This document shows, one piece after another, positions 10,041 to 59,226 of a stretch of 64,000 nt of DNA. The notes beneath the pieces were generated by a model. That model was not told the DNA's origin. It made no database searches and saw only the letters and a list, made by a program, of their open reading frames with translations. Made by a program: the position numbers and the translations under genes. Numbering within the stretch: position 1 is the first letter of the stretch; the number at the start of each line of letters is the position of its first letter. The stretch comes from Lantana camara. Its lineage: Eukaryota; Streptophyta; Magnoliopsida; Lamiales; Verbenaceae. Location: assembly GCA_037501455.1 (NCBI GenBank), contig CM074865.1, forward strand, positions 18,050,501 to 18,114,500, given 5' to 3'.

Positions 10041-10042
10041 GT

Positions 10043-18117: not shown

Positions 18118-18275
18118 TAATTCTCAAAGCAAATTTCTCTCTTCCATCTTTGTAGAGATCGCCGCCCATCAACCACCACTTTTCTGCTATCCGCCCACAC
18201 AAAAACTCCACCCTACTCGGCGCGCGAGCCACATTTTGTTTTTTCTCTCTAATTTCTTAGATTATAATTTGAGTT

Positions 18276-25429: not shown

Positions 25430-27304
25430 AAAAACATTGATTCTCATACATTTTGGAATTTTTTTTAATCTGTGATGAGTTTTCTTAGGGGAATTGTATA
25501 ACCCCTCACTAGTTATAGGGTGATCGTTTTATATTTCTCGTGTGATTGATATAAATTTTAATAAGAGTGATCATCAACTAAAAAACAAACACAATATGCC
25601 TGTCATATACTTAACCAAAGTTAGAATTTTTTACCTGGTAGATTTGAACGATATCATTAATATATTAAATATTATTTGCATTAAGTACCCAAATTAATTG
25701 GACTTTTTGTATACATTTTCTTTAATTAGTCTATACTGTTTATATGTTCCATTTTATTTTTGTTATTATGACGTTAAAGGCTCTGGGATTGAAAATGGTT
25801 TTCATGCTTTTGTTAGCCTCTTGGGAAAGCCAGTCATGCAATCGCAGCAATTGTACATGTTTGGATCCAAGAATCTGGACTTATATATCAGAGGTGAGGA
25901 TTCTTATTATAATTATTATTTTGGTGAAATTGAAAAGTTAATTTTGCAAGAAAAAATTATTCACTTTTTCTTTTTAATTTAATTTGCATGGACTTTTGTT
26001 TTTTCTTTTTATAATTTTTGGGCAATAATTTCAAAGCTAAAAGTTGATAAAAAAGGAGTTGGAGGATGTGGAGGATTAATTAGGAGAAAGAAAGGAGCTG
26101 TGGCAATTAGAATCACCTACAAGGGAAGACATATGGTCTCCATTTCTTGCCATCTTTGTGGTAATTATGATATAAGGTTAATTACGTTTATTATATTGAG
26201 GTTTAGTAAAATTGTTAATTATTATTTTCTTTTGAAAAATTACACAATGATTCCTAACATTTGCAATAAACGTGTAAAGTTTCTAAATATACCCCATTTA
26301 TACGGTGGTGTATTGTAATGTACAGGTACTTCTAAAACTACTATTTCTGAAAATCAGAATCGTCATTTGTATCTTATTGTGTTTTTATTGCCGTATTTGT
26401 CTCGGTACATTATATAAATGGTATAGAAAAGGGTATTTCTCGATATATTTTTGAAAGTTATACGCAATTATTGTAAATATCAAGAATTATACTGTAATTT
26501 TTTAAACAAGATTTCACGTAACCTCATACTGAACATAATTTGACCTTATTATATATGCCCTCTCAAGATTTGTTTTATTTATATAATATTTTTGTAATAA
26601 AAAAATTTGACATTATTTTACAGCTCATGCTGTTTGGCTTCATTACTTCAAATGTTTGCAATCCAGTCGGGATGGTTTAGAGATTTGGCAAAGTCTGACT
26701 ATGCTGCCAAGTACCCCACTTTACTTTTTACGTTTGGGCCGTCACCCATTTGCACCATGTGGGGGAAATTTACTTTTCGGAGGCCATGTAGATTGGATAA
26801 GGGTTGAAATGACGAGAATACCCTTCCATAAATTGGCGTGCAATTGTTGTTGTGGTCACCCCATTCCCAGTTCAATTTCTGAAGCTTCAACGAGCCAGAG
26901 ATTGCGAGAGTGGTTTGTTTGCTTCCCAGTAAGGCCGACGAGGTTATTTGATCAATTAGCAAGGTAACTATGTCGGCATCCAATTTTTTTTAAATCACGG
27001 CTTGTTTTTGAATTTAGGAAGTGCAATCCATACATGCTTCGAAGTTCTGTTTTGGAAATTGTTGTCGTGGTTAGGGTTTTGGCGGTGGGTTGATAGCTGG
27101 GTTGAAACACCGGCAAAACTTAGAGCGCATTACAATTACGTCCTTATTTGGTTAATGTTTGAAGTGTAACACATAGTTTATTTTTCATTGTGGCTTGAGG
27201 TATATCTGACCCATTGGTTCTGTGGTTCATACCGCTGTAATTGGGGATTCCTTTGGCTGAAATATGATATGAATTTCATGGATTGTTTGTATGGTGTACT
27301 TCAG

Positions 27305-27745
27305 ATGCAAAGATTTCTTATCCCTTGTGAGTGCGGAAATGGCCCCAAAAATTTCTTGAAGGCAGGGCAATATGTGCAGCACCCCAGGAGGTTCTACTAC
27401 TGGTGTCCTTTGAAGTTGAAATCATGTTCTTTTGTTTGGGCGGACGAGTTACTGACACCGAAGCATTCCAACCTCCACCATATCATGTTGCCCTATCAAT
27501 CCTCATTTCAGCAACCCCAGGCTTCTGGCGTTCGTACCCGCACGGTTGGGGTTGGAGATCATTCCTTCGACGAGAGATCCGAGGGAGCCTCCTCAAGTGA
27601 TCGTGTTGTTAAGGGAATTCCACATGAACACGCAAGCGTGAACCGTTCGGATGCACTAAATGTGGTTTGCTGCTGCTATGGTCTTTTTTGTACGTTGATG
27701 TGTATGTTCGTACTGCTGTTGTTGGTAATTGTTACAAGGAATTAG
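27305..27745 (+). CDS. GRF-type zinc finger protein with C-terminal membrane segment (146 aa)
   Basis: A small protein starts MQRFLIPCECG. Residues about 8-50 are a GRF-type zinc finger, with PCECG, then QHPRRFYYWCP, then CSFVWADE. This gives the spaced Cys ligands and the 'GRxFY.C....C.FF.W.DE' pattern. Residues about 50-115 are a polar, Ser/Arg-rich linker. Residues about 118-143 are a strongly hydrophobic segment (LFCTLMCMFVLLLLVIV) followed by TRN, predicting a C-terminal tail anchor. An AG lies just before the ATG, so a 5' untranslated exon is likely. The frame has no defects. GRF fingers bind single-stranded nucleic acid in other proteins. The role here, inside a Harbinger element, is unknown. 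The other element has a counterpart at 57739-58204. Confidence 0.72.
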   Translation: MQRFLIPCECGNGPKNFLKAGQYVQHPRRFYYWCPLKLKSCSFVWADELLTPKHSNLHHIMLPYQSSFQQPQASGVRTRTVGVGDHSFDERSEGASSSDRVVKGIPHEHASVNRSDALNVVCCCYGLFCTLMCMFVLLLLVIVTRN

Positions 27746-28270
27746 GTTGGGGTGTTTAGATGGCTGTCTGAGTCATGGATTATGAATGAACAAGTTTGTA
27801 ATGTAGGACTTGATAAACTTATGTAGTCGAACATTGGGATGTTTTGTAGTTTGTCAATTTCAATATATGTTGTTTGAATTTCACTATAAAAACACTCGTG
27901 CAATCATGATTTCTATTTGCTTGTTGAATCAGTGTCATACATATACCAAAATTACTTTTCAAAGGCATGCATTATATCTTCCCTTAGTTGCATTCCCGAC
28001 ATTGTTTTGTAATACAATGCTGTTGTGTACATCCAACAAAAGCAAGCAACATAATTCATCACATACCAATCCGCAAAACCAATACTTGACACTACATTCG
28101 TGACCATTACATATTGCCATAGGGATGCTATTCCCCTTGGCTATTATCTGCTTAGTACTAAAGCCCACCCCAACCAATATTCAAACATAAAAAATTTAAT
28201 GGTCCTATATGCCATTAGCCATATGCCGTCATAGCAGATTGAGTTGAGGATTAATTTGTATTACGGATCA

Positions 28271-29222
28271 TTAGAAGAAAAGGCGACGCTTTGCATGTGC
28301 ATTCTCGTTACTTGATTCACCAGAGATGCGGACGTCGTTTTCTTCAGGCGAAATGACAATGACTTCCCTCGATGGTTTCAACAGTTGACCCTCCCCTTTG
28401 GTGGTGCTCATGCGATCCTCGGGCGCGAAGTCAATGACAACCCCTTTTTGCTTTTGCTTTCTTATTTTTTCGCGTTCGAACATACGCTTTTCCTCATCAA
28501 CTGGGACATGTTCAAAACAAAGATGCACACAAGTTATATTAGACATAAAAGTTGTGACCATATTTAAGGATGTTCGCGGTTAAAGGACTTACGGTAGTCA
28601 GCCAAGATTTCATCAATAGTAGGCAAGGGACGCCCATTGAGTTCGATGTTCTCAAAAGCCCTGGGGGGTTTTGGAGCCAATGTTGATTTGTCGTAAGACT
28701 TTCGGGCTTCGTCGGGACCAAATATCGTATTCAACTCGGGCCACATACACTTCATCGATACTTTGTGATAAGCACTAGCTAGCTCGTAAGTCTTTGTGTC
28801 GCCAACGGAACAAAAATTGGCTTTAAAACGATATGATCAATGATTAAACAAGACGACCAATATACATGTAGCAATATTTTTCGTACCTCGCACAACTCTA
28901 TCCATGTCCAACAAGTTGCTTTGACGGAGTACGTGGATGGATTGTAGACAACATCTTCATGCTCCATGATACCTTTCCATGTTTGGTACCTTAGGTTGGC
29001 AAGCTTGAAACGACGATGTATGTCGAAAAGATTGAACTCCAAATTAGTATGCCATTGCATGTGATCATGAACATGGGGGAGGATACCGTGATCGTTGAAG
29101 GTGAGAGCACAGGCTGCCTTGAGAGCTTCTGCATGCAACTCAAGAAGGAAACTCTCATCCAAGTTTTCTGACCATCTCTGTTTTTCGAAGAAAGTCCCAT
29201 TCTCTGTTAAGAATGCAGCCAT
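28271..29222 (-). CDS. Myb/SANT-like domain protein, three exons, 254 aa (element A)
   Basis: The CDS is complement(join(28271..28500, 28593..28791, 28887..29222)), with donors GTACG and GTAAG and acceptors AAAG and CCAG, an unbroken frame of 254 residues. Exon 1 (112 aa) carries the domain: a tryptophan helix start (WSENLDESFLLELHAEALK), then RRFKLANLRYQTWKGIMEH, then VVYNPSTYSVKATCWTWIEL. This fits the Myb/SANT-like (Myb_DNA-bind_3 type) pattern ending 'D...N.V.A....W'. Exon 2 has HKVSMKCMWPELNTIFG. Exon 3 is charged (REKIRKQKQKG) and ends AHAKRRLFF, a possible nuclear signal. Relatives are DNA-binding partners of Harbinger transposases or host nuclear proteins. It is intact although the element's transposase is broken. 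Confidence 0.75.
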
Positions 29223-29936
29223 TTTGTGAAAGTGTAACCTTAGTTTGAATATTGCTACTGGGGTGAATGTGTGCATGATCTGCAATGACCTTTTGTATTA
29301 ATAGTGAGCCAAGCTATGCTTTTCATTTATGTGAATTTATGATGATCCAACCACCTCTACACGATCTTATTTTTTTGTTCTGAAATGGCTGCTTTACATG
29401 GTTGGCAACGTCAACTCAAGTTATGGTCGTAGGTACTTGACACTAGAATATTGCACCCAAATATAGTAAAATTTCCTGATATTTCCATCATATGCCTGAG
29501 GGCCCTATATCTAAGTATAAATCTTGTGCGTATTTTGGATTTGATCGTTACTTCATTGTGAGTGTTTGGGGTGATTAAATTATTCAACTACCGCATTCTA
29601 GGGTTATCATGAAAGTAAAGAATTATTTGGGCCAAATATTATGCGTGCATGTGTAGTCATTCATTGTTGGATGCACATATTCACATATTCAGTCAGGCAA
29701 CTTTTAAGAGAATCTTACATGCTTTGCTTACAAAAAAAGGCGGACTAACAGCCTTGGCTCCTATTTGTTTTGTTGACTATGCCTTGAGATTTATAAAAGT
29801 ACATATAATGCCAAGCACATAGGACAAGTAGCTATTTGAAACTATCCCTATTAATATAAGTGCCTCCATTCACCTTATGAATACATGAGTTTCCGTTTCC
29901 CCTTCATTGCCATATCTTTGTCTCTCCCAATCTAGT

Positions 29937-30571
29937 ATGGACCCGAACCCTCAATAATTGCCAATGCCGGATCATGTTCGAGAGCATAAGATTCGTTCAT
30001 ATCTCAAGATATAGACTAATTTGGGGCTACGACTCAGCAATGATGAATTACAAGAAATGATACATGTTTTGTGGTTCACCTGTGAGCTTGTAGATTTGAC
30101 TGATCGCAATGTCATGATCTACACATGCAAGCACCTCGCAGATCACTTATCACTCGTCTTCTCACGGGAGATAACAAAGTCTATGGTCTTTCACTAAGTT
30201 AGCGCAATGAGGGGTGCATTTATCCGTTTCGCATATTTCATCCAACTCCCCTGTGTTTCGTACGATATGGCAACGAACACGATCGAAGTGAACGACGACT
30301 ACGTCCGCGACTATCAACCCCATGTATGTATCCATGTTTATATTTCTTACATGCGTGTTTGTTCAAGGTTTGACCTTAAGATGACCCAAGGTCTTTTAAT
30401 TATTTTGTGACGTAGGAATCTGTACATGAGAGGATTTTCAGGCGTGACGGGTTCATGTTCTACGAAGCAAGCGTTCAAGTGTTTGTCCGGCACTATGCTG
30501 CGATTGTTCCAGGAGAATCCAGTGAGAATGATGCAAAACGCCCTTTCCTTCATCATCGGGCGATGCCTTAA
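29937..30571 (+). pseudogene. Myb/SANT-like gene, two exons, with stop codons (element A)
   Basis: The frame is join(29937..30323, 30416..30571). One frame reads LGLRLSNDELQEMIHVLWFT, then MRGAFIRFAYFIQLPCVSYD and MATNTIEVNDDYV, the Myb/SANT-like 'R...F......V.YD..TN.I.V.D' core. A CAT|GTATGT donor and GTAG acceptor lead to SVHERIFRRDGFMFYEASVQ, ending at TAA. In-frame stops occur at about codons 7 and 25 and before VSAMRG (near 30195), so it is a pseudogene, though the rest of the frame is well kept. It faces the 28271-29222 gene head to head. Confidence 0.65.
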
Positions 30572-31041
30572 TGATCATCGTCACATATATGTTCTGAAAG
30601 GTAATGGGTCTATTGTCTTAGTAATAGCAGATTGCATTGCCTTGTTATTTGGTTGTCGACTTGGCTGCACCAAGTCACGTATCTGTCCTTAATATGGTTA
30701 TTCAAATTTTATGGTTGTTTTTTATTCTCGTCGATTGATTTTCTCCACATAGTTGTGAAATGATGGTCAAAGTTAACAGACTTCACTACAGATAATGCAA
30801 CATTTCACTTCCTCAAAACCAATAAAACATAAATTAGACTAACAATTTCATAAACGTTTCAGCACAAGCTGCTGAACAGAGGTACCGAACATCACCGAAC
30901 ATCAGTAGCTACTTACAAAAACAAAATGAGGATTTAATACATCCTAAGCTACTGGACTAGTGCCACACCCGAAGTTCATATACAAAAAGCAGCATTCTAC
31001 GAATAATACCATAGTTATAAATTGGAACGTAACATTTTCAT

Positions 31042-32081
31042 TCACCAAGTGGCCTTCTGCAATGCTAAATGCACCATGTCACACTTTTCTATATCTGGGA
31101 GTTCAAAGAAAACATCCAGCAGATCCTCATGTTTAGCCAACTCACTTGTCGCCCGGATCTTGTCGAACCTTGATAGTGTTAATGGTAGATCTTTGACACA
31201 TTCGTACAGTTTCTTACGGTTTTCAGCAGCCTTCACATCCACTCGTGTGTTAACATCCTTCTCCAATGCATCAGCAACCTTGTTCAAAGCCGCGGTGGCA
31301 TTTCCCCACAATAAGTCAATCCGATTTACAATTTCGCTGACATCGTCGATCCTTTTACGTTTACCCTTCATGGCACTAGTGCCGGAAGTGGATTTAGGAG
31401 AACCGGATTGAGCCTGAGTGGGGTTGGTAGAAAGTCCTATGTTCGGACTCTCAGTGTTAGTCTCTTCGATTACCTCGACTCCATTTCCGGCTCCATCATC
31501 AGCAGGGATGCTATTGAAGTCGAATGCTCCATTACCTGTTGCGCCGTCACGACCATAGATTTCAACCCAAGTTTCATAGTACGGGAAAGGTTTCTCCCGA
31601 ACATTTGCTAAATCAGGATTGTACTGCACATACGAAACAAGCAAATAGGTCAGCCCACAAACTGCCAATAAAAAATACTCAGCTAATTAAGAGTCGGACA
31701 AACCATGATAAGGTTATCTCAGTCCTTAGGCAAAGCGCGAACTGTCTTCTCAGTTGAATTCCACCCCATGCCAGTCTTACCTAACGCCTCGTACACTTCG
31801 CGATATGCTTTTTTCCAGGTTCCATATTTCGATTGTATGTGTGGATTGCCCCGCAAAATAGTTCTCGGTATCGCCAATTTCATACGCGCCTCGAGTTGTT
31901 CAATAAAACCTGCCCGGAATCCATTTGGTGTTTTCCAACCACCTGCAATGATATCCTTAAAGGCGTTGAGTAAAACCCGCTCTTCATGAGTTGTCCATAC
32001 GCGTCTCGATCCATTTTTCTTCGTCAAACTCGCTTCCCCACGATAGCTAACACTTTGAAGCTGTGACTGAGAGTGTTGTAT
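31042..32081 (-). pseudogene. Harbinger MYB/SANT transposase partner (element A), one nonsense codon
   Basis: The exons are complement(join(31042..31623, 31704..32081)). Exon 1 carries RRVWTTHEERVLLNAFKDII, GWKTPNGFRAGFIEQLEAR and KYGTWKKAYREVYEALGKTG, the trihelix-like MYB/SANT domain typical of the PIF ORF1 partner. Exon 2 starts YNPDLANVREKPFPYYETW and continues through a Ser/Thr-rich linker and basic KGKRKRIDD to a helical C-terminus with LLDVFFELPD. This protein normally brings the transposase to the nucleus and the element ends. A TGA at 31719-31721 sits where the element C copy has Trp (WDNL), so the copy is disabled. A 5' exon with the true start was not identified. Confidence 0.82.
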
Positions 32082-32413
32082 CTGCAAAGCAATCACAAAT
32101 TTCAGTTTACAAAGCCTTGATCAGATGAATGTGTAATATAACCATAGCCATTAACAGCACTAATTCCAAATCAGTGGCATATGACAACAACAAGAAGTTT
32201 AATATATATAATCGGATAAACATAAAGTACGAAGTCATAGAACTTGTCATTCATTCATTTGCTAACAGCTTCACATGAACCACACAAAACTGCCCATGCA
32301 TCACAAAAAGGAACATGTTCAACATAACTGATTGCCACAACTCCAATTGTTCAATGTTACTTTTGGAGAACTGCAATCACGTACTACATAGCTAAAGTAA
32401 TAGTGAAACTCAA

Positions 32414-33850
32414 TTAAGCCCGGGATCTGAAAGAGTTCCACATGTCATCTGCTAATTTGTCACGGAAATTGGTCCAAGCTTGAGTGGGTTCAATGTGAGG
32501 AACGTATTCGGCTTCATTATCGTCGTGGTCGTCCTCAAGGTCGGAAGCATCCAATTCTTGCTCAATGGGGTCTACTGCCATCTCATTCCGAATGTAATTG
32601 TGGAGCAACGCACAAGCCATTATTATTTCATTCTGTACGGTGATATTATAGAACTACGGGCTACAGAGGATGGCCCATCGTTTTTTGAATATACCCCATG
32701 CACGCTCGATTGTAGTCCTCGCAGATGAATGTCTCTTATTAAACAACTCCTTGCTATTAAGTGGGACACGATTTCCCCACTCCTGCAAGTGATAGCGCAC
32801 AGCGCGATAAGGAGCAAGGAACCCGGGGCCGTTAGTGTAGCCTGCGTCGCACAGGTAGTAGTTCCCTAAATTAAAAAACAAAATGTATTATGCTTTGCCT
32901 CATGTCAATCCACGGATGAGTTAATCAAATACAATAAAGAACAGGTGCATTAGCGAGATAATCGTCTGCTGCGTACCTTCCGGAACTCGCAAACCGTTTG
33001 GCCTACGCACGGCGTCACGCAAAACGCGACCATCCGCAGCTGAACCTTCCCAACCAGTCAACAAGTACGTGAAATTACATTTACGGTTACATACGCCTAA
33101 TACGTTGATATGGCATTTCCCTTTCCGTGATCGATACCGGCCCTTATCAGTGTCGGGCACCGTTACTTCAATCAACGTTCCGTCCAATGCACCTAAGCAA
33201 CCCTATTGATTACACAACAATGAGCGAGTTAACATCAAAAATTAAATTGGTAGGTTGTACAATTTGGCCCCGAAATAAGAAAGTAACTGAAAGATACTAT
33301 ACTGTTATTCAAAGCCACAAGAGAACAGAGTGGATACCTCGAACCATTTCCAAGTGTAATCCATGCGGCCGGCCTCAACAGGTGTCCTTTTAGCAATGAA
33401 GATTTGATATAGTTTCAATATAGCCTTCAAGACTTTGTGGAAATACTTCGATATGGTTCGTCCCGACCGTTCATAATCGAACTCGGCAACACAATTTTTC
33501 TTATGGTGTGGCAGGACCCCAAGGAAAATACAAACTTGCTCAACCACGGTAGCTTCACGACTATCGGTTAACCCACCCAAATCTCGAAGAATCACACAAA
33601 GACGGCCTAGAGCGTCCCGACCCATACGCAGCAAGCTAATACATTTTCTCTCCGATCTTCGGGTTAAACGATCAAGATACTTTATACGTGCAGGCATTCT
33701 CTCCTTCAGACTATATGACATAGAGGAGTCACCTTCAAGCCTACGACGCTGAGGACTGATCAACGAAACTAATACCAACGTATCCATCAACATACCAAGC
33801 AAAAAAAACTTAATAACCGCAACTACGAGGAGAGCCTTCCTAGGATGCAT
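32414..33850 (-). pseudogene. PIF/Harbinger DDE transposase (HARBI1-like), one nonsense codon (element A)
   Basis: The CDS is complement(join(32414..32865, 32977..33202, 33338..33850)), phase-consistent, 396 residues if the single TAG is read through. The catalytic triad can be placed: first Asp in [13 protein letters not shown], second Asp in [14 protein letters not shown], Glu in ARTTIERAWGIFKKRWAIL. Upstream lies the helix-turn-helix region (MGRDALGRLCVILRDLGGLT, FLGVLPHHKKN, SGRTISKYFHKVL). The TAG at 32654-32656 lies after RWAILCSP, beyond the Glu; downstream ACALLHNYIRNEM follows in the same frame. The start ATG follows a CCCAG acceptor, as in element B, implying a 5' UTR intron. It lies divergently outward from the other genes at the right end of the element. 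Confidence 0.9.
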
Positions 33851-34780
33851 CTGGGTCGCACATATACCAATGCCAAATGTTAAGAGCAAATAACTATTAC
33901 AAATCCCATTCAAAATCCAACACCAGGAGGAAGGCGGAACAACACGAAATAAATTGGGCATTATTCAAAAGAAATCATCATAAAACGCACAACCAGCAAG
34001 GGAGAATTGCCGTCGTCATACCTTGTAAATGATCTCCACCCAATAGTGCCACTGATGCCCTGCTTTCAACTTCTCAACCTACAATCATTCGAACACGGAG
34101 GCCCAATTAACCAACAAGGTCGAGACCGGAGCTGACAAGTACAACAAAAAAGCATACCCACATCTTACCAGACAAGTCTCCCGAACCAGATCACTCTTCC
34201 ACCAAGCAGATGGTTGAAATTACCTTGTAGTGGGGAATATAATTGGAGTATACTCTTGAACCTAAAAAGGAAGTAAATGGCGGGGAAAGGTGAAAAAAAA
34301 TAGGGAAAAAACACATATTGGGTACAGCAAATAAGGGTTGTTTAGTAAATGTCAATACAAAACCGAGGACAAAACAGACATTTTGTGTAATCCATTGCTT
34401 ATAGCTAATATAGCAACAGCTTTTACAGGCGGCTACATCAATCTCCCTTTTCTTTCTCCGTACCGGGGCTCCGAGAAAAGAGAGGAAATTGTGCACTTCA
34501 AAGTAAAGGACAGAAATGGGCCGACATAATTGCCAACCTGCCAATTTCTCATAAAGTAAATGAAGCCTTAATGTGGAAGAGAGAAATTAGAGTTTAGGCA
34601 CATATCACAGTCCTTATTTTCAAAAAGCTGGAATCCATATGCCAGGCCAGCTCAACTCACTGTGTGGTTTTAGATCTCAACTACATACTACAAGGAATTA
34701 ATTAATACATTTCCTGCCAGAGATCTAATTCATAATGACCTTCATGGAGTAGGTTCGCCTAAACTTTATTAACCAATAAC

Positions 34781-48659: not shown

Positions 48660-49089
48660 GTACGTACATTGAAGTGATTGTGCGGCAGAATGTTCAAGCG
48701 GAATACCGAACACGTAAAGGGTCCGTTGCGGTTAATGTTTTAGGTGTTTGCAATCCCCAGATGAACTTCATCTATGTATTGTTTGGATGGGAAGGTCCCA
48801 CCTTTGACAGCCGTATTTTGCGAGATGTTGTAGCCAAGCCTAATGGACTACGGGTTTCACTAGGTTATTTCGTTCAGAGAAACCCATTTATTTTAGTTTA
48901 TTTGAATAATTCTTTATTGTTGTGCAAATGTAAAACATCTCTTAATTCAGTTTCTGCTTCTTATTTTACTCCGCATACAGATTATAAATCTCAATTTATC
49001 TTGTACTGCAGGACAGTATTAATTACCTCACTGATTGTGGTTATACGAATGCTGATGGATTTCTGACACCGTACTGTGGGACCCGTTAC

Positions 49090-50430
49090 TAGGGATGTAA
49101 ACGAAACGAGCCGAGCCGAGCCTTGGCATTTTTCTGCTGGTTTGGGCTCGGGCTCGTAGTCCAAACAGGCAGCTCGGGCTTGGCTCGTGAGCCAGCAAGG
49201 CTCCTAAATATTGGCTCGGGCTTAGCTCGTCCCTAGCTCGAGCTGGCTCGGCTCGGCTCGCGAGCCATCTAAAAAAGGGGGAAACTTGGCCTTTTGCTAT
49301 TCAATTCAAAAAATTATATCCACCTCTGCAGAAACATTAAAAATTTTGCATCCATCCACATTCCAAACATTCTGAAGTTTGCATCCATTCAAGTAACATC
49401 CATTCATTCTTAAATCCTAAACAGCTAAACCATCAACCAAAGCCAAACATAAGTACATAATAATCAAATGTCCAACAATTCTTAGCAGACACCTCACAAA
49501 TAACTAAATAGATTCAAAGTACATAGACTACATTGATAAAAACCATCATGCTGAATTTGAAAGCCTCCGGAAATCTTCATCAACCATCTTTGTATCAATT
49601 AACCATGCTCAAGAGAATGACTCCTCAATTCAAGAATTTGGTAACTTGATGATTACTGGCCCTCGTTCATCCTGAAAATTCATAGAGATCATTAATAACA
49701 TACTAACATTTAATTACAAATAAGAAATTTTGATAAGAAATTTCTTACTTCAAATTTATAAAGAACGTATCTCTGCCTGAAGTACAACAAAAAAGATTCA
49801 TAGAAGACATCCATAATCACAAATTAGCACCGAATATAATTAAGATAAAGAGTTTATATCCATAATCAAAGTTTAGCACCCAATATTATTAAGACATAAT
49901 AAGATATAAGCACAGCTGATTCGAGAAAATTAAGACATTTTCCTACAAAAAATCAATTACTCTTTCATAGTTAAATTTGATTATTTCCCAGAAATTTTTT
50001 GAAACCTACATCGCCACTAAGAATCTACAACCACCAAATCTCCAAATATAGAAGCCTAAAGACAAATCACAAAAGTGGAAATAAATGTCAAAATCCATCT
50101 AATTCAAATAAGAAGCAAACAAATTGGAAAATCATACCTTGAACTCTGGAGGTGGTGGCGGCTTGGTGGAGGGAGGCATGGCTACGGCTGGACTCTCAGA
50201 TCTGGAGGTGGTGGCGGCGTGGTGGAGGGAGGCAGGGCTGCGGCTGAACTCTCAAATCTGGAAGAGGTGGTGTCGTGGTGGAAGGAGGTGGCGCCGTGGA
50301 CGAGACGGCGAGACTTCGAGAGCCGAGATGGTGAGAGAGGAGAGGTGGTGGCGAAAAGAGAGGAGGAGGGGTTTCGCCGCTGGAAGTTGGATAGGGAAGG
50401 AGAAATGAATTAGGTCCATATGGTTTCTTC

Positions 50431-50479
<49 letters not shown>

Positions 50480-50629
50480 TTATAGATTGGCTCGCGAGCC
50501 TCGAGCTGTGAAATCTGTGGCTCGGGCTTGGGTTCGATCCCCCGCGAGCCGAGTCAAAACTCGGCTCGCCTTCTTCGAATCCAAGCGCGAGCTTTCTTCG
50601 AGCCAGCTCGCGTCTCGTTTACATCCCGA
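49090..50629. mobile_element. hAT-type non-autonomous element (1.54 kb) with perfect 8-bp TSD
   Basis: Ends TAGGGATGTAAACGAAACGA and ...CGTCTCGTTTACATCCCGA are inverted repeats. CCCGTTAC is duplicated at 49082-49089 and 50630-50637. Subterminal GGCTCG repeats occur at both ends, as in the MITE at 1692-2079. The interior has no transposase, a Gly/Arg-coding GC-rich patch at 50140-50400 and a (TA)n run at about 50437-50475. It interrupts the element B transposase. Confidence 0.9.
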
Positions 50630-51395
50630 CCCGTTACCATCTTAAGGAGTGGGGAAGTGGGGCATTGGCTCCACAAACACCGAAGGAGCTCTTCAATCTA
50701 TGGCACAGTCGAGCTCGCAACATGATAGAGCGGGTTTTTGTTTGCCAAATGGACCGTGGGCCATACTAAGAAGTCGATCTTTCTACCCTATCAAAATACA
50801 GAACTGGACTATTCTTGCATGTGCCATGCTCCATAATTTCATAAGGAACCAAATGGAAAGCCATCCCATCGAAGAGGAGGTCTTTCGCGACCCACCAGAA
50901 CTCCATTGGGACGACAGTGAATACATAGTGACTATCAAAGCAACACCTGCGTGGACAAATTTACGCGATACAATGGCTGCCCAAATGTTTCAGTCTAGGC
51001 ATGACTGAAGAGCACTTATTATCACCACTGTTCTTGGATAATGAATTATAGCTATATATTTATATGGCTTGGTGCTGATCAATTATGGGCTGATAATGTT
51101 TCAAGACTGTGTTTTCTATTTTATTTTTTGTTGGTGTTGATCGGTTACGACTTCAGAGTGTTTGTAGAATATGTTTTCTTTTTGGAGACTGTGTGATGTT
51201 ATGCAGTACTTTCTCTTTAATTTGTTGTGTAAGATGGCTTATTGAAGCAGTGTTACGTGCATGATTGAAAATTCTAGTATCTCAGATTACGATGGCTTCC
51301 AATATTGTTGTTGTTGTTGGTACATATTGTGGGTATATTGATTAAAATAGTTATGTTGAAAATCATAACTTTCTGTTTTGATTATTGTGTAGGAA

Positions 51396-52114
51396 ATGCA
51401 TCGCCCGTGCGAAACATCTTATGTGAGGACTGAAAAGGGTAAAGGTTTGGTTGTTCCTCGTCGCTTTTGAACTCGAAAGGAGGAGGAGACACTGCTGCAT
51501 TGTCTTGAGATACTGCGCGCTGAGGGTATGAAACTAGATGGGTCTTTAAGGGGAGGGTATGTCAACCGAGTTGAAAATCTAATGGTGGTCTAACCTATTC
51601 GGCAATGACCGTGCTACTGGTACCTTCAGCTGCGACATTGGTGATGCTATGGATGAATTGCAAGTCTCAAGTGGTAAGAAAACCACTGTCAATGATGGAA
51701 GTGAAACAAGCACAGAGGATGAGGATGATGCAACTTCAGATAATATCGGGAGCAATGGTTGTACTCAATCGAAGGCAAGTACGCCCTCTAAAAAACGCCA
51801 AAAATTGATTGATTCTCTGCAAATTAAGGAGCTTATGGGTGACCTGATGACTTCTACTCACAAGGCAATTGGTGAGGTCGCCAAATCACTTTTGCAGCCA
51901 GCTACTAATACCTCTCAGTCAATCCCAGATGACGAATGCAAAGAAAGCAGGGTTGTACCAAGAAATTGTTGTGTTGCCTAGTCTTTCACTCAATCAAGTG
52001 TTGTGGGCAACACGTCATCTTGCAAACAACCACAACGGCATGCTGGCCTTTCACGGCATTCCGTTCGAGGTTCGTGCAGGATTCATTATGTCCTTGTTGG
52101 GGGCATATAACTAG
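51396..52114 (+). pseudogene. Harbinger MYB/SANT transposase partner (element B), broken frame
   Basis: It starts MHRPCETSYVRTEKGKG after a GTAG acceptor. An in-frame TGA lies after VVPRRF, then KEEETLLHCLEILRAEGMKL with GYVNRVENLM follows in the MYB/SANT position. The middle (about 51649-51930) is acidic and Ser/Thr-rich with SKKRQKLIDSLQIKELMGDL. A frameshift near 51940 leads to LPSLSLNQVLWATRHLANN, FHGIPFEVRAGFIMSLLGAY and stop, the usual C-terminus of these partners. It lies 390 bp downstream of the transposase on the same strand. Confidence 0.8.
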
Positions 52115-52716
52115 TGAAGTTTTCCAGGTTTATTTGGGTTTGATTACCCTTTTTTTATCCTCCCAACTCTTCTAACAACAACAACCCTTTTGTTTTGTGC
52201 ACGCATTATAAAAATGATTATCTGTTCGGAAGGATGATATTATAGTAGTGTCTGAATATGTACTCTAGTCTTCCTAAACAACTCCAATAGTGTTTGGAAG
52301 GCTGACTGACTTTACAATCCAGTATTATGTATTTGAATCTACCTTGTGGAAAGGTACTGTAATTGAACCTTGTTATTTCTGTTTAGTTATGTTTCAAACT
52401 AGTAAGCCAGCAGTAAATGAACATTGTTGCTTTTTATTCTTTGCAGTTTACAATCTTCATTTTTTGTATATTTTTCAATTATGGACTTGGTAAAATTGCA
52501 ATGTGTAAGGTCTAAACACATTCTACTCAAATTGACATTTTTCATTTTCCATACAAAAACTCAGGATACTGAAGCTGGAGAAAAAAAATTGAAAGGAAAT
52601 AAAATCTACAAAATGTAAACATACATGAAACTAACCAGAATATCCATAAACATGGCTGGACCTTTTACTATCGAACCACATTTCGTATAAAACGGACTAC
52701 ATCAACTGCAGCTAAT

Positions 52717-53279
52717 TCATTTGTAATCTTCCTCATCTGAATCCGTGTAAACAGCTAGGTCAACATAACTACTTCTGGGTTCGTCGGGGAAGTTTGCCAT
52801 TTGCTTCTTCCGAACGCATTTCCCAATCAGCAAACCCTTCTTCGCGAAATGCAGAATCTTGTGAACTTTCCTACATGTGACTAAGGATGGTTAAGCTCAT
52901 ATCAACATGTATTACTACTCAAAAAAATGGAAACATCCATTCAAAATGCAAACCTTCTCTTTATGGCCTTTCATATAACACCAGATACGTGGACTTTGTT
53001 TTCCTCGCAGTCGAACCTAACTTCTGGGATATGGAAAAAGTCACAAAATACGATGTACCGGATGCGTGCACGCTTCATAATCTCTCGAATATGGAAGCGA
53101 CTTAGTTTTATGTGAAGTCTTATTTGAATATCCTTCCCAACAACTGCACAAGCTTTCAACGCTCGCGTGGTTGTAACATCGTGGCCTTCGACGTAGTTCC
53201 ACATGCCGATTACTACCATCCGCTCAAGACAACTTTGGGAAGGAAATGGCGTAGGTACATAAATGGAACTGCTGCTCAT
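52717..53279 (-). CDS. Myb/SANT-like protein, two exons, 148 aa (element B)
   Basis: The proposed CDS is complement(join(52717..52865, 52982..53279)). Exon 1 starts MSSSSIYVPTPF and has a domain core LSRFHIREIMKRARIRYIVF, then PEVRFDCEENKVHVS, the 'R....F.......V.FD...N.V.V' Myb/SANT-like signature. Exon 2 gives HFAKKGLLIGKCVRKKQ and an acidic end VDLAVYTDSDEEDYK. Donor G|GTGTTA and acceptor AAAG|TT are plausible but weak; a GTATCT donor is the alternative and would shift exon 2. No stop interrupts the frame. A Lys/Arg-rich patch may direct it to the nucleus. Function is unknown. Confidence 0.55.
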
Positions 53280-53608
53280 TTTTCTCAAAGAAACAAGTAA
53301 GAATATGTTCTTTACAACTTTTACATACAAATGGGTATGATAAGATTGTGTAAAAGAAGGTGATTTACATTAAATAGCGGACTTAAATACATATGGTTAG
53401 CCAGTGCACCTAATAAAGTTGATCACATTAATAATGCCTTGGACGTAGTAAAGTTGTTCAAACACAATTAAAATAAATAAGCTTAATCATCATTAAATCA
53501 TTACATGAGATACATTTTTCTTAACCTAGTGCAATTACAATGCAAATCATAATGGCAAAGATAACAACACTGCCAGCTAACACATATTTCTAACATCAAT
53601 CTAATTTA

Positions 53609-54212
53609 CTAATCAATATGCAAAGGTATACACTCCGGATTAACTTGATTTTCTTGAGGTTCGTCGGGAAGCAAAGTAGTACCACGTCTTCTGAATATAC
53701 AATGGACAACTTTGATTTTTGGGAAGCCGAAACGTCGGAATCTTCGTTGGTGTATTGTTTCCTGATTGATGGTAATGTACATATGTTAGTATACGCTATA
53801 CAATTAAAGGACATTACATATTAGTTAAGTTAAAGTCAATGCGAAAGTGATACCAATGGTTGGCACATATCCGAATAATATGTCGAGAACAAGAATGAAT
53901 TAGTTGTGGCGTCGAAATCGACCCCTGGTTGCTGTATATACTCCCAAAAGGATATATAGCGACCCGTAAAACAATAATTTCGTTCGTAATGACCTCAACC
54001 CCTACTAATCTTCCATATTCGGTGGAAATCGAATCCGCAATTTCATTACATATTTGTAAGAGATAATCTTGTTGCTCAACAGATTGAGTATGTGCACCGT
54101 TGTGTAGAAGTTCCAAAAATCTATCAAATTCTGAGATGGCGCGAGAAGACCGTGATGAACTTTGTACCCGATTTGCAATAAGATCGACGGAGTCAAGTTT
54201 GAATCCAGCCAT
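53609..54212 (-). pseudogene. Myb/SANT-like gene, two exons, frameshifted (element B)
   Basis: The exons are complement(join(53609..53761, 53854..54212)). Exon 1 starts MAGFKLDSVDLIANRVQSSS, contains EFDRFLELLHNGAHTQSV, and after a one-base shift near 53960 continues RYISFWEYIQQPGVDFDATT and NSFLFS. That last part is the conserved 'RY..F...L..PGV..D..TN.....' segment of Myb/SANT-like proteins. Donor G|GTATCA and acceptor TCAG join in phase to a basic exon 2 (RRFRRFGFPKIK) ending PLHID. Without the shift it would be intact, so a sequencing or assembly slip should be considered. Confidence 0.55.
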
Positions 54213-55106
54213 TGTAATTTATTTCATTCTAGTTTTTTCGTTTTAATATATATAATAATAATTAGGTTGGACATATATATAATAAATGATATGGGACTGA
54301 AGTATACTATGGAGGCTACTGAGACGCTGCAACATAGTAGTCGTTGGGTGCCTAAGGTCTGTCAACTTTAGTTGTAATCTATATCAAGCAAAAGATCTAG
54401 TTGGGGGCTCAAGCCATGAAGTGTGACAGTCAACAATATTCTTCAATGGCAGGGAACCTTTCACTTCCTATGTGCTTTTGGGTATATTTTATTCCCCATG
54501 ATGTTGTTCAATTGCACATGGGATTCGATGTGGTAGATTTCAAATGTACGAAAGAGTTTTAGATTTGATTGCAGACAACTGCTTTGGGGTGTCATGATAG
54601 TAATATTTAGAATTTTCTAAATTACAGTGTCGAGTGCAACGGACAAACACACTAATATTTACTATTTCAATTGAGCAGACCTAATATTAAGTGGGTCAGT
54701 TTAAGATAAATAGGGAAGTAACTAAACAAAATTAATAAGAAATTAACTTATTTCATTCAGTTTGTGTTCAAATATGTCCAAAATCCCGTAATTACTAAGT
54801 TAGGTTCAGCAATATCATGACCAAGGAAGTCCCATTTCATTTGGGAGTAGATAATCAACTGAATAAAACACAAACACACAACATAACATTCACGTAGAGG
54901 AAAGTTCTAACAAGTAGAACATTTTATTACAGAAGACCAAGTACATAAAAAGACAATGTCGGTAACCAACTACTCATGAGTTCACATTCAACTTTAGATA
55001 AACTAGAAACATTAAATACGATGCAAAATAAAACCACGTCTGTAGCAACGGTAGTCCTAAGCAAGTGGACTATGCTTTTATTTTTGCCACAACGATAGAG
55101 CTGATA

Positions 55107-55733
55107 TTACGGTGCAACGTGTCCAAAGTTGACTGGTGGTTCGAAAATTTGTACTAGAGAAGCAAAAGCAGGCTCCCCTCGCCCGTAATAAGCAAAGCAA
55201 TGCACGCTACCCTGTACCATTTGTGAAGATCCAGTCAGAAAGAATGCATTTACATTCAGAAACTATGCTCAAATGTTAAGGAAGGGAAATTTATGGGATG
55301 AGTTAAACGATAATCAATGCATGACATATTATGGAACATGTGCAAATGTATTAAACTTTATTGCAGGTTAACCTGAGCACGCAATCTCTCCCAATGTTCT
55401 TGAGGAACTTTAAGAACACCAGTGCTGACGTGGTAAACAACACCAGAAAAGGGTTAAAAGATGGCTGAAGTTATGGTAACGATGTCGTAGGATTTTTAGT
55501 CGCTTCATGTAATATCGGAATGAAAGGGAAACCTCAAACATGTCGTTCATCACAATCATGATCGGATCTACCACGCCGGCACGAAGGCCACGATCCATAC
55601 GGAAACCGCGTTGAGCTTCTAGACAGAGTAAGTGTATGTATGCCTCGTCTTGTTCACGTGTCCAGCGTCGGCTATTGAAAAATCTCTCAGGCCTAAACAT
55701 TGTGGCCTGTTCCTCAAAGGTAAACCTCGACAT
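55107..55733 (-). pseudogene. Myb/SANT-like gene, two exons, frameshifted (element B)
   Basis: The exons are complement(join(55107..55211, 55373..55733)). Exon 1 starts MSRFTFEEQATMFRPERFFN, with RRWTREQDEAYIHLLCLEAQ and YYMKRLKILRHRYHNFSHLL. A one-base shift near 55450 moves into STGVLKVPQEHWERLRAQ before a GTTAACC donor. Exon 2 reads GSVHCFAYYGRGEPAFASLV and ends NFGHVAP. The W..EQDEAYI start and 'HWERL...' plus 'YYGRGEP...L..IFE' order is the standard architecture of plant Myb/SANT-like transposon partners. It is otherwise well preserved. Confidence 0.65.
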
Positions 55734-55998
55734 TGTGTCAGGGGAAGGTTATGTAGTGAGTGAGGTTGGGAGAGTTTTTCTTTCAGAGCAATGTGGGTTA
55801 AAATAGATGGTTGGCAAGTTTATGTATGAAGGCTGGTATTTATAATAGGTGTTTGTCCTTGCATGCTTTTGGGGAGTACAGCTAGATTGGTTTAGTAATT
55901 TGTAAAAATTATAAAAATAATGAATGGTGCCTTGTATGACTCTTTAGTTCATCAAACTGGAAAGAAAAATCAATTTATGAAAATATTTTGCATGTAGA

Positions 55999-56866
55999 CT
56001 AACCAGATGGATCCGTCGACGTACGAGCACATGGGGAAGATGCAGCCGAGCAAGCATTTGAAGAGCTGCCAACTTCTGATGAGACATAGATAAACTTCGG
56101 CACCTGAGGTGGCAGCTGACGATGAGGACCAGCAATGCAGGATTCTACCCTAGAGACACTGCTATCGTCATCGACTGCGTTGTAAATTTAGGTAAGAATA
56201 CAACAATAAAAAAAATGCAATATCCAACAAAATTATTACACGAAAAATAAGAGAAACTACGAACTGATTATGAAAGTCTAAGGAAGAAACGTATCACTTT
56301 GAATAGTGACAATTTTGCGGCTTTTCCGCAGCTCATTTTGCAGCCCTTTTCCAAAAATGATGTCAAGCTCGTAGATGCTAGGTTCGGGTTTGTAGTAGTA
56401 TGCACCACAAAGCTTGTTTGTCTATGAAATACGAAAAAAAAATGAATATCAAATACATACACAACAATTACAAGAAAAAAGGGTTTACATGTAAAATATA
56501 AATAAATTTATAGTTAAGTTTTACCCAACAAACATAATCCCATGCTTCTCGTGACCCAGTGACATATTTAGTTGTAGGGTCGATCTGCACGTGGTCACAT
56601 TTGCTTAACCAACTCCATGCAACATACCTCTTGTGGAGAAATTGGAAGCGCTTGAAGCAGTAGTAGTAGTCAAAAACCATATGAAACTTGTTGTTCACAT
56701 ACTCAGTAGCATTAGTGATGGAGACATGGCTGTCCTCCGTTAGCTTCTCACCATTCTCGAACACCTCTGTTTGTAGAGCTTGAATGAAACGTATATCAAT
56801 TTCTTTGATCCAAGGGTCTGGGTAGAACTTCTCTGCTTGGTAGTTGAAATGGGTTCGGAAAGACAT
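55999..56866 (-). CDS. Myb/SANT-like protein, three exons, 213 aa (element B)
   Basis: The CDS is complement(join(55999..56174, 56298..56421, 56525..56866)), phase-consistent with no stop. Exon 1 (114 aa) has PWIKEIDIRFIQALQTEVFE (helix 1) and YYYCFKRFQFLHKRYVAWSW, then VQIDPTTKYVTGSREAWDYV, ending at a TGG|GTAAAA donor. Exon 2 gives NKLCGAYYYKPEPSIYELDI and IFGKG, the 'N..A..Y.Y.PEP..YELD.IFG' segment typical of the family. Exon 3 is acidic and Ser-rich (DDDSSVSRVES) and ends STDPSG. The exon structure parallels the 254-aa gene of element A, but sequence identity outside the domain is low, so they diverged long ago. Confidence 0.75.
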
Positions 56867-57738
56867 TTCGAAACTTATTTTAGCTTTTTAGAAGCAGGAA
56901 TTTATTAGGGGGTGAAATGGAAGAAACACCCTGCGTTCTTCTAACCACATAATTGAAAGTGGAGTTATCTTCCAATTGAAAGCTGAAGTCCTTAATATAG
57001 AAGAGTCTTAATACCAACAAGTATACAAAGACTTAATGACATGTCAGATCACAACCAACACTGTTAGTCTTAGAAAATACTTTCGGGTCTATATCTTAAT
57101 TGATCTCAGACAGGTGGTAGTTGGACATAAATACATATTATACAAACGTTGCACAACTACGTATTCAACTGCAGCAAATGTAATTTAAATTTAATGGGAG
57201 GGTGGCATGTCAAACCACTGTTTGACAAATAACCTACAATTTAGGCCCTACACAGCGTGATATTCAATTTTTATGTATACATTCAAATCTTTATAGAAGA
57301 CTGGATTTGTGGGGGTTAACATAGAAGGATGTATAAACGTATTTATGAAACAATAAATATGACTCTTCTGGGGCAGTTATTCACCATACTTGTCTAAATT
57401 TAAATCTTCACAAAAACCATGTTTTCAAGTAAATATCAGACTGGATTATTGGCAATATATTAGCAGGTACCACAGAAACACAAAAGTATATAAATGATAC
57501 TACAAAAAGTCAAATAAACTTTCAATTTCATCAGTTGTACATAACAAATATTCATGATAAAAGAAGGTTTCCATTCTGCGTAAGAGTTAGTTTAACGGGA
57601 ATACAGGAGCTCGCCAAAAGTCCCGCCATTGCTAAATTCCTAGTACATGTCATTAACAGACATGTTGCATTGACAAAATAGGACGCTAACCGCTAATACA
57701 ACAAATAAGTCACTAAAGTGTTAATATGGAACATACTT

Positions 57739-58204
57739 TCACATGTCACGAGACAAACCGTAGCCCAGCATAACACAAATCGTTAGAATGACAACCATTG
57801 CAAGTAAAACAAGTTGAGAGTGAGGAACATATATGCCACCTTGGTGAAGATAATCATTGGCGGGAGGGAATGGTGCAGGCCGTATTACCATTGGTTAAAG
57901 GATTACCAGTGGAGAATGACTCAACAAATTTGCTAGTTGCACTTTCCTATCTTGTAATTATGCCGCCGGAATCGTTAGGTGCACGCATGCAATTATAAAC
58001 TGCTCCAAAGGACTTTGACTCAGTTGGGTGTGGAGGCAGCCATGGGAGCCCATGATGAACACCCCACCATTGGAAGAAACCCTCATGGCGTTGATTCATC
58101 GGACAAATGTAGTAAAACCTGCCCGGATTCATGGTGGAATTTGATCTTCGTAGAAGCATCGATCCATGTCCCAACGGGCAGTGAGTGGGTTCGCGATCAT
58201 GCAT
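57739..58204 (-). pseudogene. GRF-type zinc finger gene with C-terminal membrane segment (element B), frame uncertain
   Basis: It starts MHDREPTHCPLGHGSMLLRR, then NPGRFYYICPMNQRHEGFFQ and WWG: a GRF-type finger in which the last Cys position of 'C.FF.W' reads His-Glu-Gly before FFQW. After the stop of this frame near 57947, another frame (about 57886-57739) gives PPANDYLHQGGIYVPHSQ, then a hydrophobic LVLLAMVVILTICVMLGYGL and SRDM stop. The same order (finger, linker, tail anchor) is seen at 27305-27745. Either a frameshift or a small unrecognised intron separates the halves. A 5' leader exon with donor GTTAAG|TAAGTG-like sequence lies near 58530. Confidence 0.6.
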
Positions 58205-58869
58205 CCCAATTGTTAATATAGACACAAACAAGATCAATTTATGGGAACTATTGGCCAAAATCCACCCAACAAACCCACCTTAACAATATATTAGATCAGG
58301 AAAACAAAAATGGAATATTCGATGTCAATATTTCTCAAGTAAAATACATCATTTTCGGTCAAATAAATATAAGAATTACTTTCAATTTTTCAGAATATGT
58401 GCCCACAATTCAACTATGAACTCCATTAAGTAGCCACATTTTACCTTCATGATTTCATTTTAGCACAATACAAATTAAAAAATATCATCAATCACCCTCT
58501 TAAGGTTAGCGGAAAACACCTACCACTTACTTAACCGACGGTAGAGGAGGGGAGGCAACAGATTGGCAGGTGCCTTCTTCAGATCGCTTCTGCGGGATCT
58601 TCAGCTAGGGATTCCAAATAGAATGGGGGAGATGAATAATTTAGCTCACGTACAGACCTATTTAGTTGCCTTTATGTTTAAGTGTATTTTGGTAAATGAA
58701 TGAAAAAGGGCTTAAAAAGTGTGTGATATCAAACAGAATATTAAAATTAGTTGATTTATGAAATGGGCTATCAAACAATAAATTAACTCGTGGATTGGTT
58801 GAGGTAATTGGACTTAAAAAGCCCAAATCAAATTAAACCCTGAAATGCAATCTCATGAATCAAACACTT

Positions 58870-59226
58870 CCTATATATATTAGATGTCATGTCGGTTGCC
58901 TATTAATTTATATAAAATTTTTGACGCGTGCTAAGTTATATAAAAATTTTATATATCATTGCATCGTGTCTCTATTCCATATCATTTTGCATCTGTAAAT
59001 CTTAGCCATAGTCGTTAACATGGTTCCTAGACTATCACTGGACTGGATGACAATTAATTATCTATATTATTATATTAAGTGTAAGGACAAATGTGTCAAT
59101 AAGAGTTGATTCAAATGGGGAAACTCTGAGAGATTAAAAAAAAAAAAACAATTAAATGATTCTTTCTCCAAAGCAAAACCCTTCAAGAATAAGGGTTAAT
59201 TAATGTAATCGTTATATTAAAAATAA
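58870..59226. other. Element boundary region with a SINE 3' fragment
   Basis: No gene is present. At about 59114-59150 the sequence GGGGAAACTCTGAGAGATTA followed by an A-run matches the 3' end of the SINE at 25279-25429; the head is missing, so it is a 5'-truncated or decayed copy. The rest is AT-rich. Confidence 0.65.

What the first reader, a model, noticed from the sequence alone, without database searches (positions are those of the whole stretch)
26636..58869. A family of large multi-gene PIF/Harbinger elements with Myb/SANT and GRF-membrane accessory genes
Seen: element A (26636-34567) and element B (43531-58869) both have, from the transposase end inward, a DDE transposase, its MYB/SANT partner, and several extra spliced Myb/SANT-like genes. 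Both end with a GRF zinc finger gene carrying a C-terminal hydrophobic segment. Known: PIF/Harbinger elements normally carry two genes, transposase and MYB/SANT partner, in 3-6 kb. Inferred: the extra genes are a conserved cargo or an extended transposition machine rather than chance neighbours, because the order is similar in two elements with different termini and divergent sequences.
Basis: partly seen in the sequence, partly recalled or inferred. Interest (0 to 1): 0.88.

Follow-up and report, generated by a model that had tools for sequence, protein, structure and literature searches.

The report
Multi-gene Harbinger transposons in a plant
A plant genome carries many copies of a jumping DNA element that moves five to seven genes as one unit, although this kind of element is usually described as having only two, and the extra genes have been kept by selection in several lineages of the element.

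Summary
Confirmed and extended. The window's genome (1.27 Gb) holds dispersed copies of element A, six near-complete at about 97% identity and others at 72-76%, with 14-bp inverted ends (GGCTTCATTTACTT) and matching 3-bp target duplications at 9 of 13 copies with both ends read. Element B has a second copy with the same ends (TAC duplication) that lacks both nested insertions seen in the window. A third, diverged element (L050, 9,340 bp, TAA duplication) carries transposase, MYB partner, X, SANT-a, SANT-b and GRF in A's order and strands, plus SANT-a. Between lineages all five A genes show dN/dS 0.06-0.25 and largely congruent trees. In the (truncated) genome lists, 96 of 150 SANT-b genes have a GRF gene within 6 kb, all convergent; GRF and SANT-b found within 12 kb of a listed transposase are always downstream in one orientation (GRF 36/36 and 20/20; SANT-b 36/36). 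Papers seen here describe these transposons as two-gene elements. I read this as a conserved, extended PIF/Harbinger lineage: a new variant of a known kind. What the extra proteins do is inferred.

The parts
26636..34567 (-). Element A, whole (transposase on - strand); TIR GGCTTCATT(T)ACTT at both ends; TSD TTT/TTA (one mismatch)
27305..27745 (+). GRF-type zinc finger gene with C-terminal hydrophobic tail (accessory), about 146 aa
   Evidence: ORF; 133-145 aligned codons, dN/dS 0.16-0.23 against four diverged copies; genome family
28274..29222 (-). SANT-b gene, at least three exons (28890-29222, ~28594-28776, ~28274-28510)
   Evidence: Myb_DNA-bind_3 6.6e-5; dN/dS 0.10-0.25; genome family
29936..30571 (+). 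Gene X, divergent Myb/SANT-like, two exons; broken by stops in this copy, first exon open in 8 other copies
31045..32024 (-). MYB/SANT partner (ORF1), two exons
   Evidence: Myb_DNA-bind_3 6.9e-7; dN/dS 0.06-0.14
32417..33760 (-). DDE transposase, at least four exon blocks
   Evidence: DDE_Tnp_4 9.7e-8; dN/dS 0.07-0.20
43529..58871 (+). Element B, whole (left end approximate); TIR about GGAAGTGTTTGATTCAT
44710..51005 (+). B transposase, interrupted by two nested insertions
51397..51978 (+). B MYB/SANT partner, degraded
   Evidence: ORF positions; assignment by position and by eye
52720..53279 (-). B gene X2, weakly similar to X
   Evidence: dN/dS 0.69 vs C8 copy
53612..54212 (-). B gene X1, homologue of X
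55110..55733 (-). B accessory SANT gene S1
   Evidence: Myb_DNA-bind_3 3.2e-4, just under cut-off; dN/dS 0.20 vs C8 copy
56002..56866 (-). B accessory SANT gene S2
   Evidence: Myb_DNA-bind_3 7.2e-6; dN/dS 0.18 vs C8 copy
57742..58213 (-). B GRF gene, two exons, hydrophobic tail in the second
   Evidence: Zn_ribbon_GRF 5.1e-6; dN/dS 0.57 vs C8 copy
45172..48659 (+). Nested solo-LTR-like insertion in B (TGTAGCACCCC..GGGGTGTTACA; GTACA/GTACG)
49090..50627 (.). Nested hAT-like insertion in B, 8-bp duplication CCCGTTAC

Best explanation
Elements A and B are members of a PIF/Harbinger-type cut-and-paste lineage with an enlarged, conserved gene set: DDE transposase and MYB/SANT partner at one end, then a divergent Myb/SANT gene (X), one or two further Myb/SANT genes, and a GRF zinc-finger protein with a hydrophobic C-terminal tail at the other end. 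SHOWN: the genes lie between shared TIRs, occur together in dispersed copies, keep a fixed order and orientation, and are under purifying selection in step with the transposase. INFERRED: they serve the element. The most likely working model: transposase plus MYB partner cut and paste, as in Ping/Pong and Harbinger3; the extra Myb/SANT proteins bind element DNA or chromatin and tune the complex or oppose silencing; the GRF protein binds single-stranded DNA through its zinc ribbon (as recalled for other GRF proteins) and is tail-anchored to the nuclear envelope or ER, placing the element or its repair near the membrane. X is dispensable, since one lineage of A has lost it.
For: Copies with TIRs and matching TSDs (B: 73, 76; L050: 87, 89). 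dN/dS for A's genes against diverged lineages, setting aside X matches of 10-15 codons where X is lost: transposase 0.07-0.20, partner 0.06-0.14, SANT-b 0.10-0.25, GRF 0.16-0.23, X 0.15-0.20; shifted frames 1.03-3.50. B's accessory genes pooled 0.34, shifted 1.06 and 1.21. Congruent gene trees, with GRF and X of the composite C5:3.39 copy as the exception. Linkage in the listed matches: 36 of 150 GRF near a DDE hit, all 36 downstream and opposite (random mean 0.45, max 3 of 1000); 96 of 150 SANT-b next to a GRF, all convergent (random mean 0.24); 50 of 150 transposase relatives with at least one accessory (random mean 0.78, max 5 of 500). X is Myb/SANT-like: 12 of 24 members hit Myb_DNA-bind_3 (best 1.8e-4), hhalign E 6e-6, model HHH-EE-H at pLDDT 85.
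Against: 100 of 150 transposase relatives have no listed accessory gene within 12 kb; the lists are truncated, but some may be true two-gene elements, so the set is not essential to all. X is missing or a remnant in one A lineage. B's GRF and X2 are only weakly constrained (0.57, 0.69), and against the closer C10 copy B's genes scatter from 0.39 to 3.09. Among the ~97% copies the transposase ratio is 0.48-1.08: recent copies show little constraint. Six of 21 X genes near a transposase are on the same strand, not the opposite one. No expression, localisation or binding data. No relatives outside this genome were found for X or GRF (the database seems to lack plants).
Confidence: 0.72

Rival explanations
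1. A narrower reading inside the best explanation (odds overlap with it): the accessory genes are an anti-silencing or regulatory module rather than part of the transposition complex. Multiple Myb/SANT proteins bind the element's own chromatin and counter Polycomb or DNA-methylation silencing.
For: Several different Myb/SANT genes per element. Domesticated PIF proteins in plants (ALP1/ALP2, HDP1/HDP2) act with chromatin complexes (passages of PMC9710019; start of abstracts of PMC7282668 and PMC4890758 in listings). VANC-type anti-silencing proteins of VANDAL elements are a recalled parallel.
Against: No binding, methylation or expression data; does not explain the GRF protein with its hydrophobic tail.
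Confidence: 0.3
2. The extra genes are captured host gene fragments (transduplication, as proposed for Pifvine-3 in grapevine), carried passively.
For: Grapevine PIF elements up to 7.2 kb are listed, and the extra 5' region of Pifvine-3 was read this way (passages of PMC2528002).
Against: Purifying selection in frame between lineages, congruent trees, the same gene types in three TIR families, and a fixed orientation at dozens of loci.
Confidence: 0.04
3. Neighbouring separate insertions or segmental duplications only look like a multi-gene element.
For: The region has nested insertions, one copy (C5:3.39) is a composite, and 4 of 13 A copies lack a matching duplication.
Against: Copies start and stop at the same two points with different flanks and mostly matching 3-bp duplications.
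Confidence: 0.02
4. The accessory genes are cargo useful to the host plant, spread by the element.
For: Long-term purifying selection.
Against: The genes diverge with the transposase tree, stay tied to it in fixed orientation, and recent copies decay; nothing seen points to selection at host loci.
Confidence: 0.08

Closest known systems
PIF/Harbinger superfamily (PIF, Ping/Pong, Harbinger3_DR)
   Same: DDE_Tnp_4 transposase, Myb/SANT partner protein, short TIRs beginning with G, 3-bp mostly TWA target duplications
   Different: 5-7 genes in about 8-10 kb (without nested insertions) instead of two genes; a survey gives about 4.1 kb as mean autonomous length and two ORFs for most families (PMC4482050, passages)
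Pifvine-2/-3 of grapevine (PMC2528002, passages)
   Same: Plant PIF elements of 5.8-7.2 kb; Pifvine-3 often has up to 3.5 kb of extra sequence beside ORF1 and transposase
   Different: That sequence was called transduplicated host DNA; here it is conserved genes under selection. I could not test whether Pifvine carries the same genes
ISL2EU
   Same: Related transposase group whose second protein is of another type (YqaJ) (PMC4482050, passages)
   Different: AT target duplications and a YqaJ protein; neither seen here
Pack-TYPE elements / gene-capturing transposons
   Same: Extra genes between TIRs
   Different: Those are non-autonomous carriers of host coding DNA (PMC8903248, start of abstract in a listing); these carry their own transposase and the same gene types across lineages

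Membership tests
PIF/Harbinger | DDE_Tnp_4 (HARBI1-type) transposase | tested here: met
   A 9.7e-8; B 4.7e-5, just below the curated cut-off; L050 3.3e-14
PIF/Harbinger | Myb/SANT-domain partner gene next to the transposase | tested here: met
   A 6.9e-7; L050 2.5e-8; B's partner is degraded and assigned by position only
PIF/Harbinger | Short TIRs with first base usually A or G | tested here: met
   GGCTTCATTTACTT (one of the ends begins with T), GGAAGTGTTTGAT at the right of B, GGGCGCGTTTACATGGG / GGCCGCGTTTACATGGG at L050
PIF/Harbinger | 3-bp TWA target-site duplication | tested here: met
   Matching TTA or TAA at 7 of 13 A-family copies (one, C11:70.86, with an inferred right end) and at L050; matching but not TWA: TAT and TAG at 2 of 13, TAC at the C10 copy of B; no match at 4 of 13 A-family copies nor at the window copy of B
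PIF/Harbinger | Usual coding capacity of two ORFs in about 4 kb (stated for 'most' families, so typical rather than defining) | tested here: not met
   5 genes in A, 6 in L050, 7 in B
PIF/Harbinger | Transposition by these proteins | not testable with these tools
   Only dispersed copies and target duplications seen
ISL2EU | 2-bp AT target duplication and YqaJ protein | tested here: not met
   3-bp duplications; no YqaJ hit among the ORFs scanned with Pfam
Pack-TYPE / transduplication | Extra sequence is fragments of host genes, not maintained by selection | tested here: not met
   dN/dS 0.10-0.25 in frame for A's accessory genes against diverged copies, 1.04-2.52 in shifted frames
Myb/SANT-like (Myb_DNA-bind_3) for gene X | Match to the Pfam profile and fold | tested here: inconclusive

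The most novel reading that the evidence does not exclude
A large, old branch of plant PIF/Harbinger transposons has a standard set of five to seven genes, with several specialised Myb/SANT proteins and a tail-anchored GRF zinc-finger protein that ties the element or its repair to the nuclear membrane. The 'two-gene' description of this superfamily in plants is then incomplete, and many plant genes annotated as orphan 'Myb/SANT-like' or 'GRF-type' proteins are transposon accessory genes.
Probability: 0.45. Interest if true: 0.85.

Novelty: new variant of a known kind. Interest (0 to 1): 0.74.

Why it matters
Papers seen here state that PIF/Harbinger elements carry two genes (PMC9710019, abstract passage: all known in plants and animals; PMC2836001, passage: virtually all characterised; PMC4482050, passage: most of 214 families). 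A lineage with a conserved five-to-seven-gene set, linked at dozens of places in one plant genome, means that the machinery or regulation of this superfamily is richer than described. It gives a ready set of candidate accessory factors for existing yeast and Arabidopsis excision assays. It also offers an origin for plant families of small Myb/SANT-like and GRF-type genes that annotation may treat as host genes (inference).

Tried and rejected
Rejected: captured host fragments, chance neighbours and segmental duplication (see rivals). An early guess that X might be an OB-fold protein was dropped: profile comparison and the model point to a Myb/SANT-like three-helix domain, although neither structure search gave a decisive match; a family not listed there is not excluded. 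The first X model (pLDDT 65) was set aside for the second (pLDDT 85). Protein-database searches with X (E up to 10) and GRF (E up to 1) gave nothing, probably because plants are not held; no conclusion was drawn. Solved-structure sequence search with X: nothing. The first dN/dS run for B used wrong frames for several pieces; only one search is used. Codons with stops or gaps were skipped in all dN/dS counts; diverged copies held up to 5 stops in a gene. Rows dropped: two second pieces of the same X gene (53 rows to 51 loci). Lists used are those shown: 150 of 178 DDE matches, 150 of 151 L050-type transposase matches, 150 each for GRF and SANT-b, the number scored out of 395 and 270 candidates; so counts are lower bounds. 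The 20 X loci fetched were my choice out of 51, mostly those without stops. Random controls used rounded lengths for one or two contigs. Searches for print on extra genes. 'harbinger' with 'grf zinc finger' gave 0 papers; the others listed no paper whose title or shown abstract start describes extra conserved genes in plant PIF elements. The library is open-access only; Repbase was not available. PMC9179366 (fish; passages) and PMC13317346 (one passage) had nothing on such genes.
Full report
WHAT WAS CLAIMED. Two large elements (A 26636-34567, B 43531-58869) each hold a DDE transposase, a MYB/SANT partner, extra Myb/SANT genes and a GRF finger gene with a hydrophobic tail, read as a family of multi-gene PIF/Harbinger elements.

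GENES IN THE WINDOW. Stop-to-stop ORFs were listed and ten pieces of each element scanned with Pfam. A: DDE_Tnp_4 9.7e-8, Myb_DNA-bind_3 in the partner 6.9e-7 and in one accessory gene 6.6e-5. B: DDE_Tnp_4 4.7e-5 (just under the cut-off), Myb_DNA-bind_3 3.2e-4 (just under) and 7.2e-6, GRF 5.1e-6. A's GRF gene has no Pfam hit, but its L050 homologue has one (2.8e-6), and in 3 of the 4 sister copies printed the finger reads GRFYYW. B's transposase is interrupted by a 3,488-bp solo-LTR-like insert (TGTAGCACCCC...GGGGTGTTACA, flanks GTACA/GTACG); across the joined flanks the reading frame runs through the DDE motif region. It is also interrupted by a 1.54-kb hAT-like insert with the 8-bp duplication CCCGTTAC.

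COPIES OF A. A DNA search of the window's own genome (1.27 Gb) gave near-complete copies at about 97% on C3, C10, C1, C5 (two) and C11, a truncated one at 92% on C5, and diverged relatives at 72-76% on C11, C8, C1 (two), C7 and C5, among others. Not every copy is whole: C5:40.65 lacks the right end, and the last 340 bp of C3 and C10 match at only 72%. The ends recur at the same points with different flanks. The TIR is GGCTTCATTTACTT. Target duplications with both ends read: C3 TTA, C10 TTA, C1:139 TAA, C11:69.3 TAG, C8 TAT, C7:95.5 TAA, C1:119 TAA, C1:112.8 TAA (ends about 24 kb apart after an insertion) and C11:70.86 TTA (right end inferred beyond a later insertion), that is 9 of 13. No match at the window copy (TTT/TTA), C5:30.08 (TAT/ATA), C5:3.39 (TCA/TTA; a composite) and the short derivative on C2 (GTA/TTA).

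SELECTION. Codon comparison of the window copy with the diverged copies (Nei-Gojobori, Jukes-Cantor), setting aside X matches of 10-15 codons in the lineage that has lost X and the A-type pieces of C5:3.39: transposase dN/dS 0.07-0.20, partner 0.06-0.14, SANT-b 0.10-0.25, GRF 0.16-0.23, X 0.15-0.20. In these comparisons the shifted frames give 1.03-3.50. Against the ~97% copies the ratios are higher (transposase 0.48-1.08; GRF 0.23-0.46), as expected for recent insertions that decay. Trees of GRF, SANT-b, partner, transposase and X (12, 12, 14, 14 and 11 of 14 elements) show the same three lineages. The exceptions are GRF and X of C5:3.39, which come from an A-type piece; X is absent or a remnant in the C8/C7/C1:119 lineage.

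ELEMENT B. A DNA search found a copy on C10 with both ends of the query (1 and 15339), in pieces at 91-94%, with the LTR (query 1642-5129) and the hAT-like insert absent and its own insertion of about 9.4 kb. A further partial copy on C8 (85%, query 9183-15339) ends at the same base. The C10 copy has TAC on both sides; the window copy has no duplication that I can recognise. Accessory genes against the C8 copy: pooled dN/dS 0.34 (634 codons; shifted frames 1.06, 1.21), with X1 0.22, S1 0.20, S2 0.18, GRF 0.57, X2 0.69. Against the closer C10 copy the gene values scatter (0.39-3.09) on few changes.

A THIRD LINEAGE. One of the distant X loci was fetched with about 10 kb around it (L050). It holds a 9,340-bp element, TIR GGGCGCGTTTACATGGG (GGCCGCG... 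at the right), duplication TAA on both sides, with transposase(+), partner(+), X(-), SANT-a(-), SANT-b(+), GRF with hydrophobic tail(-) (Pfam, where SANT-b at 2.2e-4 is just under the cut-off and X has no hit). Turned round, A reads transposase(+), partner(+), X(-), SANT-b(+), GRF(-): the same order and strands without SANT-a.

GENOME-WIDE LINKAGE. GRF: 150 matches scored of 395 candidates. SANT-b: 150 of 270. DDE_Tnp_4: 150 shown of 178. L050-type transposase: 150 shown of 151. 36 of 150 GRF lie within 12 kb of a listed DDE match (random mean 0.45, maximum 3 of 1000), all 36 downstream and on the opposite strand. 96 of 150 SANT-b lie within 6 kb of a listed GRF (random mean 0.24, maximum 3 of 1000), all 96 convergent, median 1,486 bp. 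Of 150 L050-type transposases, 36 have SANT-b (36 downstream, 36 same strand), 20 have GRF (20 downstream, 0 same strand), 21 have X (21 downstream, 6 same strand); 50 have at least one, 22 at least two, 5 all three; random mean 0.78, maximum 5 of 500. 34 of 51 X loci lie near one of the three. The lists are truncated, so these are lower bounds; equally, 100 of 150 transposases show no listed accessory gene. The counts include the A copies themselves.

HOW IT PROBABLY WORKS. Shown: common termini, fixed architecture, joint selection. From published work: transposase and Myb partner are both needed for transposition (PMC2836001 and PMC9710019, passages). Inferred: the further Myb/SANT proteins bind element DNA or chromatin, and the GRF zinc ribbon (single-strand DNA binding in other GRF proteins, recalled) is anchored in a membrane by its tail. 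X is dispensable in one lineage. Whether the module drives transposition or protects the element from silencing is open.

WHAT IS KNOWN. PMC9710019 (passages, one from the abstract) says all known PIF elements in plants and animals have two genes; PMC2836001 (passages) says virtually all characterised ones; PMC4482050 (passages) surveys 836 genomes, with 214 PIF/Harbinger families, most with two ORFs, mean autonomous length about 4,124 bp. PMC2528002 (passages) notes long Pifvine elements and reads extra sequence up to 3.5 kb in Pifvine-3 as transduplication. PMC2213677 (Medicago; term search only) had no occurrence of six extra-ORF terms. I found no description of a conserved GRF/SANT gene set in plant PIF elements in the listings of searches; the library is open-access only.

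VERDICT. This is a new, conserved, extended form of a known transposon superfamily; the job of the extra proteins is still to be tested.

Noticed in passing
window 45172-48659: Solo-LTR-like insertion in B's DDE exon; many further matches at 74-95% elsewhere in the genome.
   Followed up: partly
window 49090-50627: 1.54-kb element with TAGGGATGTAAACGA at its left end and an 8-bp duplication, hAT-like, AT-rich repeat inside.
   Followed up: partly
window 59246-60495: Large imperfect inverted repeat (pieces 75-85% complementary, about 330 bp on each side of a 600-bp middle), a fold-back type element right outside B.
   Followed up: no
window 60878-62131: 417-aa open frame with a CCHC-like zinc knuckle by eye, perhaps from a retroelement.
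   Followed up: no
window 18273-21651: 577-aa open frame and a downstream frame that look by eye like a plant kinase/RNase (IRE1-like) gene; not scanned.
   Followed up: no
window 29380-29419: A 40-bp stretch outside the assigned exons is 88-93% identical in four diverged A copies whose sequence on one side no longer aligns: possible regulatory or protein-binding site.
   Followed up: no
L043 (G000:C2:41157946-41159931): A roughly 2-kb derivative with both A-type TIRs that keeps part of the partner/transposase region: a deletion derivative and a natural substrate for an excision test.
   Followed up: partly
L028, L029, L022 (G000:C5:3387866-3396239): Composite copy: a 94-95% A-type piece with GRF and X lies inside or beside a 72-75% diverged element.
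   Followed up: partly
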